From Halorubrum xinjiangense (GTDB lineage: Archaea; Halobacteriota; Halobacteria; Halobacteriales; Haloferacaceae): a DNA stretch of 64,000 bases. The notes under the pieces were generated by a model that made no database searches, had not been told where the DNA came from, and saw only the letters and a program-made list of their open reading frames with translations. This document shows, piece after piece, positions 2,187 through 23,846 of the stretch. The stretch lies in the NCBI RefSeq assembly GCF_900102375.1, contig NZ_FNBO01000004.1:124001-188000 (forward strand), given 5' to 3'. Positions within the stretch are counted from its first letter, which is position 1. Each line of letters starts with the position of its first letter. Position numbers and translations under genes: made by a program.

Positions 2187-2290
2187 TTGACCTCCTCCCG
2201 CGCCTGAAGACGCGGGAATCCCACCACGGGATTTCAGGCCGAGCGTGGCCTGGCGGTTTCAAGACGTATACGTTCCACGCGTCGCCTGCT
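2187..2290 (-). ncRNA. Predicted omega RNA (reRNA) scaffold of TnpB, element 1
   Basis: In IS200/IS605 elements the guide RNA of TnpB covers the 3' end of tnpB and the right end, and its guide begins just outside the element. Here that region holds the hairpin CCCGCG-loop-CGCGGG (about 2197-2216) and ends in GTCAAG. The guide would start with the host sequence TCGTCTCGCTTCGTTC. The 5' boundary is a guess, and no transcript evidence is available. Confidence 0.4.
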
Positions 2291-3497
2291 GGGTCTCAGC
2301 ATCGGCGTGGCTGTCTTGTGGGGCGGTCAAACGCCCCCCATCCTCAGCCGAGTCATCGCCATCCGTGTGTTCTCTTGAATGGCTCTCTCCGCTGAGGTAG
2401 CGGTCTGCGATGTTTATCGCCCCGTTCACATCCGCTTGATACTCATCCACCCAGCAGTCGTCGTTCGTACACGTAAACGTCGCCTGTTGTGGGCGGTATC
2501 CCACTTCACCGCAAGCGTGGCACTCCTTCGAGGTGTTGCGTGGGTGTACCGTCTCAACGGGGATCCCCTTCTCAACGGCCTTGTAGCGTATCTGCGCGTG
2601 GAGTTTGGCAAATCCCCACCCGTGGAGACGCCGGTTCATGTACTCGCCGTAGTCCATCGACTCCCGGATGTACGTCAGGTCTTCCAGAACCAGCACGGGA
2701 TTCTCGACGGACTCGGCGTACTCCACGACTTCGCGGGTGACCCGGTGGAACACGTCGTCTATCTGGTTCCACAGGTCGTCCCCGAACGACTCCGCGATAC
2801 GCTCGCTTTCCCGCGTCTGGAGTCGGCGCTTGGCGGTGAAGTAGGTCTTGCGCAGCCGACGAACGGTCTTTCCCTCGTCGGCCCACAGTTCTGGCGCGGT
2901 CGGGGAACCGTGATCGTCGCGGTGACACACCGTGACGAGTGACGCTTCCCCGATGTCCACTCCGATGGGCGTCCGTTCTTCGGCGGACGCCTCAGAGCGT
3001 TCCCCCACGTCGCGGGTGGCGGTGACGTGGAGATACCACGTTCCGTCTCGCGCGAACAGTCGACTCTCGCCCATCTCCGCGTCGCCAGCGTTCACCGCTT
3101 CGAGCCAGCCCCGTTGCTCAGGGTTCGACTGTGCTGGCATCCAGAGGTGGTAATCCTCGTGGTGCGGGATTTTGACGTACCACTCGATAGCGTTCTCTGG
3201 CTTGTGGGCGAGCCGTAGCCCCTCGTTGGTGAACCGAACAGGGTGGTCGTCGTGAAGTTCGCCCGCGTTGTACGTCGTCGTGAGTTGCGGGACGTATTTT
3301 TTGAGCGCGTTCTTCGCGTACCCACTCAGGTCGTAGTTGACCACCACATCGTTCGTTTCAGTCTGCGTGGTACATCTGGCGTCGAAGGCGTCATGAAGGG
3401 CCTGTTGGTACGCCTCTCGCGTCTCTCGGAGTTTTCTCCGCTTGTGAGCGTTCGGCTCTACCAATTTGAGTTCCAGCGTCTTCGTGAGTCCGGTCAC
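2259..3497 (-). CDS. tnpB: TnpB, RNA-guided endonuclease of IS200/IS605 family (canonical active site)
   Basis: A 412-residue TnpB (OrfB), the transposon-encoded RNA-guided nuclease related to Cas12. The RuvC triad is complete and in the usual places: Asp181 in GVDIGEAS, Glu272 in VLEDLTYIR, Asp356 in ADVNGAINIAD. A zinc ribbon lies between the last two (Cys326, Cys329, Cys343, Cys348). The start overlaps the stop of tnpA by 4 nt (ATGA), so the two are cotranslated. The tail after residue 370 is Asp/Glu/His rich and poorly conserved. Family knowledge: TnpB cuts the empty donor site and so helps keep the element. Confidence 0.95.
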   Translation of the reverse strand: MTGLTKTLELKLVEPNAHKRRKLRETREAYQQALHDAFDARCTTQTETNDVVVNYDLSGYAKNALKKYVPQLTTTYNAGELHDDHPVRFTNEGLRLAHKPENAIEWYVKIPHHEDYHLWMPAQSNPEQRGWLEAVNAGDAEMGESRLFARDGTWYLHVTATRDVGERSEASAEERTPIGVDIGEASLVTVCHRDDHGSPTAPELWADEGKTVRRLRKTYFTAKRRLQTRESERIAESFGDDLWNQIDDVFHRVTREVVEYAESVENPVLVLEDLTYIRESMDYGEYMNRRLHGWGFAKLHAQIRYKAVEKGIPVETVHPRNTSKECHACGEVGYRPQQATFTCTNDDCWVDEYQADVNGAINIADRYLSGESHSREHTDGDDSAEDGGRLTAPQDSHADAETQQATRGTYTS

Positions 3498-3883
3498 GAC
3501 TCATCCACCTCGTGACGCTGGATGTAGTTCTCGACAGTCTCACTCGAAACGTGCCCAGCGGTCCCTGCGTAGTAGCCTCTCGCCCATCCGATTTTCTCGC
3601 CGTCATGGTCGGCGTATCGGTGGTTGTACTTGCGCGAGGAGATACCCTTGAACCAGTTGGCGAGGAGCGCTGGTTCGTTCTTGGGCGGGCTACTGACGAA
3701 CAGGTGAACATGGTCCGGCTGTACGGTGAGATCGAGAATTTCGAGGCCCTTGTCGTCGGCAATTTCGTGGAGGATGGTTCGCACACGGTCAGCGACCTCG
3801 TTGACGAGTACCGAGTTGCGATACTTCGGCAACCACACTATGTGGTAGTTGAGGTTGTAAGTCGCGTGCCGTGTGGTCTTCAC
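3494..3883 (-). CDS. tnpA: TnpA, Y1 HUH transposase of IS200 type
   Basis: A 129-residue single-strand transposase of the HUH-Y1 class. Visible: the HUH pair His58/His60 in QPDHVHLFVS and the likely nucleophile Tyr120 in ETVENYIQRH. The N-terminus HATYNLNYHIVWLPKYR is typical of the Transposase_17 fold. These enzymes excise and insert one DNA strand by recognising end hairpins, without target duplication. The length is that of a complete protein. The stop overlaps the start of tnpB by 4 nt. Confidence 0.95.
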   Translation of the reverse strand: MKTTRHATYNLNYHIVWLPKYRNSVLVNEVADRVRTILHEIADDKGLEILDLTVQPDHVHLFVSSPPKNEPALLANWFKGISSRKYNHRYADHDGEKIGWARGYYAGTAGHVSSETVENYIQRHEVDES

Positions 3884-22246: not shown

Positions 22247-22314
22247 GGCCGGAGCCGCGCGGCGAGACCCGAGCGGTCGTGCTGCGCGCCGTGAAAGCGC
22301 TCTTTGTCTCTCCC

Positions 22315-22420
22315 TTGACATCCTCCCCGCGCTGAAGCGCGAGGATTCCCACGGCACCGTGCCGCTGGGTTGGGATATTGTGGTTTACGACGTGACCCGT
22401 TCTTGAGGTGCGAATACACC
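22315..22420 (-). ncRNA. Predicted omega RNA (reRNA) scaffold of TnpB, element 2
   Basis: By analogy with other IS200/IS605 elements, the guide RNA spans the tnpB 3' end and right end. The region has a strong hairpin (CCTCGCGC-TTCA-GCGCGGGG) and ends in GTCAAG. The guide would begin in host DNA with GGAGAGACAAAGAGCG. The 5' limit is a guess. Confidence 0.4.
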
Positions 22421-23662
22421 AGCTTCCTTGTCAAACAGGAACGTCGATGGCTGTGCCAACCAGCCGTTACTCCTATTCACCGACAGATTCGGTGAACTCG
22501 GAGATACTTTCTGTCGGATGTTCTCAGCGCCGTTCACGTCAGCGTTCGCCACTGTACCGCAGTCGTCGCAGACGTACAACCCACGTTCAACACGGTTCGC
22601 GTCACGTTTGCGACCACAGCACGAGCACGACTTCGACGTGTCCTCCTCGGAGACTTCCTCGACGACAATACCTTCCATCTCCGCCTTGTATTCGAGGAGG
22701 TCGGTGAATCGGTCGAATGCCCACGAGTGTAAGTCGAGATTGCCGTGTTTTCCCCAGTTTTTCGACTCATCAGTGTCATCGTCTTCGCGAATCCCTGAGA
22801 GATCACCCACTACAATCGTTCCAACACCTTCCTCAACACACCGCTGGATGATGTGTTTCGAGAGCGTGTGGAAATAGTGGGTACGACGAGCCGACTTTTT
22901 CTGGTTCAGCCGGGTGGCCTGCTCGGAGTTCGAGTCATCACACCGGGCAATCCGCTTGCTGAAGTAGTAGTCGTCCTGCTTCAGACAGTTCAGCGGATAC
23001 AAATCGCTGTGACCGTCCTCGTAGGCGAGCGCGGCGAAGTTGTTGATCCCGAGATCAACGCCCACCGTCTTCTCACCGGGGGCTTCAGCCACGTCGATCT
23101 CGACCTTACAGACGAAGTGTAGTTTCCATTCCTCACCCGCCCAAACTGTCCGAACCTGTTGGACGTTCTCGACGGTGGAGAGATCAACGTCGGGGCGGGT
23201 TTGGTACTCACAGAGGATGAAGTCCGACCAATACTCCTTGAGGTTCGACCCCTTTGAGAGTCGAACGCGGTTGTACTGGGTATCGAGTTTGAAGCCAGCG
23301 GCTTTGAACGTCACCGTCGAACGCGGGTGCTCCTCGCCGTGTTTGCGGTAGCCGGGCGGGTTCGCTCTCGTATCTCCGTTGCGTCGTTTGCCGTACCAGC
23401 CGTTGAACGCCTCAGCGAGTTCTTGAAGGACTCGCTGACTTGACTGCGAATGTAAGTCATCATAGCGTTCGTGGGTTTTGAGGTACGTGGTGAGTTCGTT
23501 GTGGTTCGGGATATAATCGATTTTATCCCAAATCCGACTACATGTCCACCGTCCGACGTTCCAGAGTTTCGAGGCAGCGAACCCGAGCGAATCAAGGTCG
23601 TCTTGCACTCGAGACTGGTTCCGTATGGAAGCGGTGTAGGTGCGGGTGACGACCTGTTTCAC
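22385..23662 (-). CDS. tnpB: TnpB, RNA-guided nuclease with rearranged RuvC active site
   Basis: A 425-residue TnpB. Asp203 (GVDLGINNF) and Asp375 (NADVNGAENI) of the RuvC triad are present, but the position of the central glutamate is Gly286 (TIVVGDLSGIR). A substitute acidic residue, Glu339 in VSEEDTSKSC, stands where element 1 has Pro319. Such a relocated glutamate is known for Fanzors and a subset of TnpBs. The zinc ribbon CSCCG...CDDC is intact. No frameshift or stop is seen, so the protein should be made and may be active. There is no tnpA partner. Confidence 0.93.
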   Translation of the reverse strand: MKQVVTRTYTASIRNQSRVQDDLDSLGFAASKLWNVGRWTCSRIWDKIDYIPNHNELTTYLKTHERYDDLHSQSSQRVLQELAEAFNGWYGKRRNGDTRANPPGYRKHGEEHPRSTVTFKAAGFKLDTQYNRVRLSKGSNLKEYWSDFILCEYQTRPDVDLSTVENVQQVRTVWAGEEWKLHFVCKVEIDVAEAPGEKTVGVDLGINNFAALAYEDGHSDLYPLNCLKQDDYYFSKRIARCDDSNSEQATRLNQKKSARRTHYFHTLSKHIIQRCVEEGVGTIVVGDLSGIREDDDTDESKNWGKHGNLDLHSWAFDRFTDLLEYKAEMEGIVVEEVSEEDTSKSCSCCGRKRDANRVERGLYVCDDCGTVANADVNGAENIRQKVSPSSPNLSVNRSNGWLAQPSTFLFDKEAGVFAPQERVTS

Positions 23663-23846
23663 TATACGTAACCTATATAAATAAAATTACTTGAAGGCTT
23701 GGATTGGAGCAGCGTGGAATATCCAGCCGTGCCATCGACCGGTGGATTGTGGAGAGTAATGTCGGATTCATCCCCGCGCTAAAGCGCGAGGCTTTCTCCT
23801 TGATTCTCCGTAAGTTCTTAAGCGATACCGCGGAATCTCCGCACAG

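What the first reader, a model, noticed from the sequence alone, without database searches (positions are those of the whole stretch)
22385..23662. Solo TnpB with relocated RuvC glutamate
The central catalytic position, Glu272 in the element-1 TnpB (VLEDL), is Gly286 (VVGDL) here, while both aspartates stay. Glu339 in VSEEDTSKSC occupies the site of Pro319 in element 1 (VHPRNTSKEC). A relocated glutamate is reported for Fanzor proteins and a subset of TnpBs. The alternative is a nuclease-dead TnpB acting as a repressor. Having both arrangements within 20 kb allows a controlled comparison in one host.
Basis: partly seen in the sequence, partly recalled or inferred. Interest (0 to 1): 0.6.

Follow-up and report, generated by a model that had tools for sequence, protein, structure and literature searches.

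The report
Haloarchaeal TnpB with shifted catalytic glutamate
This is a small transposon-borne RNA-guided DNA-cutting protein in a salt-loving archaeon whose catalytic glutamate sits at an alternative position, an arrangement already described for TnpB relatives and Fanzors and shared by its whole widespread haloarchaeal family, so it is a well-defined but ordinary member of a known group.

Summary
G286 fills the usual RuvC-II glutamate position, E339 lies six residues before the zinc ribbon, and D203 and D375 are kept. This is not local decay. In its haloarchaeal family 120 of 126 reading frames have G286+E339, one S+E, and five are fragments without those columns. In 53 diverse TnpBs every protein has exactly one of the two glutamates. 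Among 13 alternative-E proteins the only acidic invariant columns are D203, E339 and D375. dN/dS is 0.06-0.19. The AlphaFold model (pLDDT 64) puts E339 directly after the fifth RuvC strand, where Fanzor's metal-binding glutamate sits. The element is a 1,495-bp solo IS1341-type transposon: TTAC left end, GTCAA right end, subterminal hairpins, an Rfam sot0042 (omega) RNA and a clean empty site in a sister species. A nuclease-dead repressor is disfavoured. The glutamate rearrangement (PMC10711439, PMC10278001), haloarchaeal solo IS1341 elements (PMC3119063) and sot RNAs (PMC12558985) are all published; what is added is their assignment to one another. No cleavage was tested.

The parts
22315..23809 (-). 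Whole element (1,495 bp), solo IS1341-type member of the IS200/IS605 group
   Evidence: Sharp conservation limits across relatives; clean empty site in sister-species locus L181
23810..23813 (-). TTAC target tetranucleotide next to the left end; presumed TAM
   Evidence: Of 109 distinct family loci the left end was located by pattern in 72: TTAC 45, TTAT 24, other 3; 37 not located. Empty site in L181 reads CTAC. TAM role inferred
23772..23791 (-). Left-end subterminal hairpin CCTCGCGC-TTTA-GCGCGGGG
   Evidence: Sequence; hairpin kept in relatives, with changes on both arms seen by eye
22385..23662 (-). tnpB gene, 425 aa, GTG start
   Evidence: Pfam OrfB_IS605 and Cas12f1-like_TNB
23054..23056 (-). 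Codon of Asp203 (RuvC-I)
   Evidence: invariant in A2 and A3
22805..22807 (-). Codon of Gly286, at the position of the canonical RuvC-II glutamate
22646..22648 (-). Codon of Glu339, alternative RuvC-II glutamate
   Evidence: just after strand 333-338 of the AlphaFold model
22538..22540 (-). Codon of Asp375 (RuvC-III, NADVN)
22324..22509 (-). sot0042 (sense overlapping transcript / omega RNA) overlapping the 3' end of tnpB; scaffold presumably runs on to the right end at 22315
   Evidence: Rfam RF02656, 165 bits against a gathering score of 88, E 1.4e-45; folds better than 200 of 200 shuffles, z -5.5
22322..22344 (-). Right-end subterminal hairpin, followed by ATGTCAA
   Evidence: right-end motif found in 102 of 109 family loci: GTCAA 101, GTCAC 1
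22295..22314 (-). Presumed guide (GGGAGAGACAAAGAGCGCTT), host DNA immediately after the right end
   Evidence: First 49 bases after the right end equal the sequence after CTAC in the empty site of L181. Guide role inferred from IS200/IS605 TnpB
2259..3497 (-). Comparator: element 1 TnpB with canonical Glu272
3515..3862 (-). TnpA (Y1 transposase) of element 1, candidate to move the solo element in trans
   Evidence: PF01797 match G000:C4:127515-127862; element 1 shares a TTAC left flank and a GTCAA right end with a near-identical hairpin. Trans-mobilisation inferred

Best explanation
The element is a solo (IS1341-type) IS200/IS605 transposon whose only gene encodes an RNA-guided DNA endonuclease of the alternative-glutamate TnpB group (D-phi-G motif plus Ealt). 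TnpB binds the sot0042/omega RNA made from its own 3' end. The RNA carries about 20 nt of adjacent host DNA as guide, and the complex recognises TTAC followed by that sequence, that is, the empty site left when the element is excised or present on a sister chromosome or plasmid. It cuts there with a RuvC site made of D203, E339 and D375, so that repair copies the element back. Movement is probably by Y1 TnpA acting in trans from other elements. Shown here: residues, conservation, element ends, RNA family, empty site. Inferred: metal binding by E339, cleavage, TAM, homing and trans-mobilisation.
For: Residues and published Ealt pattern met. G286/E339 in 120 of 126 family frames, S/E in 1, gaps in 5; D-E-D complete in 119. 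Among 155 distinct TnpB frames: 140 Ealt only, 13 Ecan only, none with both, none with neither, 2 fragments. Among 53 diverse TnpBs: 36 Ealt only, 17 Ecan only. The only acidic invariant columns in 13 distant Ealt proteins are D203, E339, D375. dN/dS over 340 codons against 10 relatives 0.06-0.19 by NG86. AlphaFold: strands 199-203, 282-287 and 333-338, so G286 and E339 lie at the ends of two RuvC strands; the RuvC part fits Cas12 structures at about 3 A. In Fanzor the catalytic glutamate lies on the loop between the fifth strand and the TNB domain (PMC11423790 passage), and SpuFz1 E541 binds Mg2+ (PMC10432273 passage). Rfam sot0042 in this copy and in all 6 own-genome family loci searched, and in none of the 14 other loci. 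Clean empty site. Three copies of a relative (L006-L008) with identical match scores point to recent movement. One rearranged RII-r5 TnpB cut dsDNA (PMC10278001 section).
Against: No activity data. In no family-1 locus examined (0 of 89) is a TnpA gene near, so mobility rests on help in trans. Only one empty site is clean to the base. The family alignment is dominated by close relatives, so sequence counts are not independent events. The RII-r5 ortholog shown active may not carry this exact rearrangement (the classification paper is not held).
Confidence: 0.88

Rival explanations
1. A nuclease-dead TnpB (TldR-like) that binds RNA-guided targets and represses transcription.
For: The canonical glutamate is missing; an intactness check by ISDra2 positions, as used in PMC13418256 (passage), would flag it as dead. 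No TnpA is nearby.
Against: E339 replaces it and is invariant with both aspartates. Intact transposon ends and omega RNA. Guides differ between copies because they are flanking DNA. The 18-nt guide has one exact genome match, its own flank, none with 1-2 mismatches, and five with 3 mismatches, none preceded by TTAC or TTAT.
Confidence: 0.05
2. A decaying, non-functional copy of a transposon whose lost glutamate is ordinary pseudogene drift.
For: The genome's next most similar copy is a contig-end pair at 88-90% identity, so this copy is single; other haloarchaeal IS1341 genes are often pseudogenes (Haloquadratum, PMC3119063 passages).
Against: The frame is open, dN/dS is low, and the same G/E pair is fixed throughout the family.
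Confidence: 0.03
3. An RNA-guided nickase or RNA processor: the shifted glutamate keeps RuvC chemistry for omega RNA processing or single-strand cutting but not for dsDNA breaks.
For: Several TnpBs process their RNA yet showed no dsDNA cutting in a cell-free screen (PMC10278001 section).
Against: Fanzors, with the same kind of glutamate position, are RNA-guided DNA endonucleases (PMC10432273 abstract); an RII-r5 TnpB cuts dsDNA.
Confidence: 0.04

Closest known systems
Alternative-E (Ealt), D-phi-G group of TnpBs (PMC10711439)
   Same: Glutamate six residues before the zinc ribbon, no canonical glutamate, non-proline RuvC-I motif (DLG), four-cysteine ribbon, third aspartate
   Different: No difference found in the defining features; this is the haloarchaeal sot0042-bearing branch. 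The word archaea does not occur in that paper's main text
Haloarchaeal IS1341-type / sotRNA (RF02656) elements, as in Halobacterium salinarum (PMC12558985) and Natronomonas/Haloquadratum (PMC3119063)
   Same: Solo tnpB, omega RNA of the same Rfam family, subterminal palindromes, no target duplication
   Different: Nothing found; the active-site arrangement is not discussed in PMC12558985 (RuvC and catalytic: 0 occurrences)
Fanzor and cyanobacterial pro-Fanzor TnpBs
   Same: Same alternative glutamate position relative to the zinc ribbon
   Different: They carry DPG in RuvC-I and pro-Fanzors go with an IS607 serine TnpA (PMC10711439); here DLG and IS200/IS605-type ends
Canonical TnpB, such as element 1 of this window
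   Same: RuvC plus zinc ribbon, IS200/IS605-type ends
   Different: Canonical glutamate (E272 in element 1) with P319 at the alternative site; no sot0042 match in its locus L015
TldR nuclease-dead repressors
   Same: Canonical glutamate absent by position
   Different: Alternative glutamate and both aspartates kept; still a transposon with self-flank guides

Membership tests
Ealt D-phi-G TnpB | Glutamate 6 residues before the first CxxC and third Asp after the ribbon (regular expression of PMC10711439) | tested here: met
   Pattern matched from D203 to D375; 9 of 9 own loci L001-L009 match, fragment L010 and the other 13 own loci do not
Ealt D-phi-G TnpB | No glutamate at the canonical RuvC-II position | tested here: met
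   G286; G in 120 and S in 1 of the 121 family frames covering the column
Ealt D-phi-G TnpB | RuvC-I DxG with x not proline | tested here: met
   D203-L204-G205
Ealt D-phi-G TnpB | Alternative glutamate sits in the metal site | tested here: inconclusive
   Correct strand-end topology in a pLDDT 64 model; coordinates not available
Ealt D-phi-G TnpB | RNA-guided DNA cleavage | not testable with these tools
   Needs bench work
Fanzor / pro-Fanzor | DPG motif in RuvC-I | tested here: not met
   DLG
IS1341-type IS200/IS605 element | tnpB without tnpA | tested here: met
   No Y1 TnpA adjacent in the own genome; 0 of 89 family-1 loci with a TnpA-like gene in the stretch held
IS1341-type IS200/IS605 element | Subterminal hairpins, insertion 3' of a short target, no target duplication | tested here: met
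   Ends; empty site
sot0042 omega RNA (RF02656) | Covariance-model score over the gathering threshold | tested here: met
   165 against 88 bits
TldR | Inactivated RuvC site | tested here: not met
   D203, E339, D375 conserved; read as intact, not assayed
TldR | Guide aimed at another genomic site beside a suitable TAM | tested here: not met
   No second match with up to 2 mismatches; five at 3 mismatches lack TTAC/TTAT; the genome is 25 contigs
RII-r3 / RII-r5 clades of the 2023 TnpB/Cas12 classification | Clade placement in that tree | not testable with these tools
   Paper not held; names known from PMC10278001

The most novel reading that the evidence does not exclude
The sot0042 TnpBs are a TnpA-less lineage of alternative-glutamate nucleases that persists by TnpB-driven homing while borrowing the Y1 transposase of canonical-glutamate elements with matching TTAC/GTCAA ends, so that one haloarchaeal cell keeps both RuvC designs on one shared transposition machinery, possibly because the alternative site does less collateral ssDNA cutting.
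Probability: 0.25. Interest if true: 0.5.

Novelty: new member of a known kind. Interest (0 to 1): 0.3.

Why it matters
It ties three published but separately reported things to one another: haloarchaeal solo IS1341 elements, their sot0042 RNAs, and the alternative-glutamate RuvC site known from Fanzors. It also warns that calling TnpBs 'dead' by canonical positions alone would misjudge a group found in 134 of 194 sampled haloarchaeal genomes. The genome holds both designs on elements with similar ends, which makes a controlled comparison of collateral cutting feasible.

Tried and rejected
Nuclease-dead repressor: rejected as the leading reading. Pseudogene drift: rejected.

Structure: AlphaFold with 37 family rows gave pLDDT 64; no coordinate file is laid in the Python box, so the distance from E339 to D203/D375 could not be measured. 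Sequence searches of the PDB were meant to show an alignment to mimivirus Fanzor2 (9b0l); it was matched but never among the alignments printed (two, five each).

I first thought that Sulfolobus islandicus TnpB7 (PMC11043419), proven active, might be an Ealt protein like the one in Sulfolobus virus SMV1 (L213). Its right end TTCAC (section read) differs from the SMV1 element's end, so I dropped the link.

Many second-family matches with one in-frame TAG looked odd. In the 12 loci fetched the late stop lies near the C-terminal end of the query, that is, an ordinary stop.

Element 1 had no relatives in viral contigs. RNA pseudoknots and a covariance model of my own were not pursued because Rfam already matched. 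VIA-align rows do not list every family; absences there mean nothing. Seed L166 was read on the wrong strand and added nothing; the seeds L164, L165 and L167 carried that test. In one search, 37 of 109 left ends and 7 of 109 right ends were not found by my patterns and are counted as misses; 8 duplicate loci were dropped before that count and 1 of 118 could not be oriented.

Full report
What is there. The window lies at G000:C4:124001-188000 of a 3.26-Mb, 25-contig haloarchaeal genome; the closest named relatives of this protein are mostly from Halorubrum. The ORF at 22385-23662 is on the minus strand, 425 aa with a GTG start, and matches Pfam OrfB_IS605 and Cas12f1-like_TNB.

Is the shift real or decay? 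In 126 family frames from the loci then held, 120 have G at 286 and E at 339, one has S and E, five are fragments without these columns; D-E-D is complete in 119. Among 155 distinct TnpB frames in all loci held, 140 have the alternative glutamate only, 13 the canonical one only, none both, none neither, and 2 are fragments. These counts are dominated by relatives. I therefore took 53 more varied proteins: 16 own-genome types, 13 and 8 members of two haloarchaeal families, and 16 plasmid or phage hits that I picked by hand from the 100 rows listed. Exclusivity held in all 53: 36 alternative, 17 canonical; of the 16 picked hits 9 were alternative and 7 canonical. On a maximum-likelihood tree built without the two columns, the two states need one change, at a branch with support 79/80, so a single split is favoured but not strongly. 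That agrees with the 'clear separation' reported in PMC10711439 (section read).

Evidence for catalysis. In an alignment of 13 alternative-E proteins at 24-56% identity to the window protein, the invariant columns are P103, D203, G205, E339, D375 and P405. dN/dS over the first 340 codons is 0.06-0.19 against ten relatives by NG86; the YN00 method failed for three of the ten and gave 0.06-0.12 for the other seven. The AlphaFold model (37 rows, pLDDT 64.1, pTM 0.56) has strands at 199-203, 208-213, 219-223, 282-287 and 333-338; D203 ends the first, G286 is in the fourth, and E339 follows the fifth. Mean pLDDT of the ten-residue blocks holding these residues and D375 is 71-79. The RuvC part superposes on Cas12 structures at about 3 A. 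In Fanzor structures the catalytic glutamate lies on the loop between the fifth strand and the TNB domain (PMC11423790, passage), and SpuFz1 E541 helps to hold Mg2+ (PMC10432273, passage). The same topology here makes the metal-site role likely, but distance was not measured.

The element. Conservation with relatives stops sharply at both ends. The left end follows TTAC (45) or TTAT (24) in 69 of the 72 loci where my pattern found it, out of 109 distinct loci; 3 were other and 37 were not found. The right end was found in 102 of 109 (GTCAA 101, GTCAC 1). Both ends carry a subterminal hairpin. In 52 same-genus genomes searched with the left flank, 48 had a match, the own genome included. Of the 29 loci fetched besides the own one, 28 held both flanks less than 1 kb apart, so none of these 28 carries the 1.5-kb element. 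In L181 the join is clean to the base: the left flank, CTAC, then 49 bases identical to those after the window's right end. No bases are lost or duplicated, as expected of Y1 transposition. The 18 bases after the right end occur once exactly in the genome, never with 1-2 mismatches and five times with 3, none after TTAC or TTAT.

The RNA. Rfam RF02656 (sot0042) matches 22509-22324 minus at 165 bits, gathering score 88. In 20 loci searched, the model matched all six family-1 loci (L002, L003, L004, L005, L006, L009) and none of the other 14: eleven canonical-E loci and three loci of the second alternative-E family. So this omega RNA family travels with this protein family. PMC12558985 treats these sot RNAs as omega RNAs and reports circular forms in Halobacterium and other haloarchaea (passages and one section).

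Mobility. A TnpA-like gene was found in 0 of 89 family-1 loci; a second alternative-E family has one in 7 of 31, canonical own loci in 4 of 11, and two archaeal-virus loci with alternative-E TnpB (SMV1, HAV2) in 2 of 2. So alternative-E TnpBs also ride in complete TnpA+TnpB elements. The relative L006-L008 occurs as three copies with identical match scores at contig ends, a sign of recent spread. Element 1 has TTAC beside its left end and a right end GGGAGGAGGTCAA close to that of family-1 copies; its TnpA at 3515-3862 is a plausible helper in trans. This last step is inference.

Distribution. Family 1: 134 of 194 class-level genomes and 50 of 65 genera at E up to 1e-100. Second family: 92 of 145 genomes. 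One relative in viral contigs.

How novel. The alternative glutamate, its D-phi-G subgroup, and clades with rearranged RuvC-II are published (PMC10711439; PMC10278001, where one RII-r5 ortholog was active: sections). Solo IS1341 elements in haloarchaea were described in 2011 (PMC3119063, passages). My searches for TnpB with haloarchaea, with Halobacteria and RuvC (0 papers), with IS1341 and archaea, and with Fanzor and RuvC (listings, and passages of those papers I opened) showed me no paper that states the active-site type of the sot0042 family, but the main classification paper is not held and may well include it. Hence: a new member of a known kind, interest 0.3.

Noticed in passing
L011 (G000:C2:266570-267892) and L134-L163: A second haloarchaeal TnpB family, about 30% identical, also has G at the canonical site and E at the alternative one, but L011 has a shortened zinc ribbon (CxC in place of the second CxxC) and the three loci tested have no sot0042 match.
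   Followed up: partly
L006, L007, L008 (G000 C4, C5, C14 contig ends): Three copies of a 60%-identical relative with identical match scores sit at contig ends, two of the contigs ending exactly at the right end; the assembly breaks on this repeat.
   Followed up: partly
L222-L231: Recurrent in-frame TAG in second-family matches proved to be the ordinary C-terminal stop; sequence stays similar past it, which may reflect the overlapping omega RNA.
   Followed up: yes
L213 (Sulfolobus virus SMV1), 2096-2124: The right end of this crenarchaeal virus element (CCTCGCCCTTTAGGGCGGGGAGGAAGTCA) resembles the haloarchaeal right end closely, and its TnpB is also of the alternative-glutamate type.
   Followed up: partly
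L206 (Halobacterium sp. BOL4-2 plasmid): A relative of L009 with VSWPED at the canonical site, and alternative E kept, lies directly upstream of a type B DNA polymerase gene.
   Followed up: no
window 23673-23686: An A/T-rich TATA-like stretch about 10-25 bases before the GTG start suggests a leaderless transcript; not tested.
   Followed up: no
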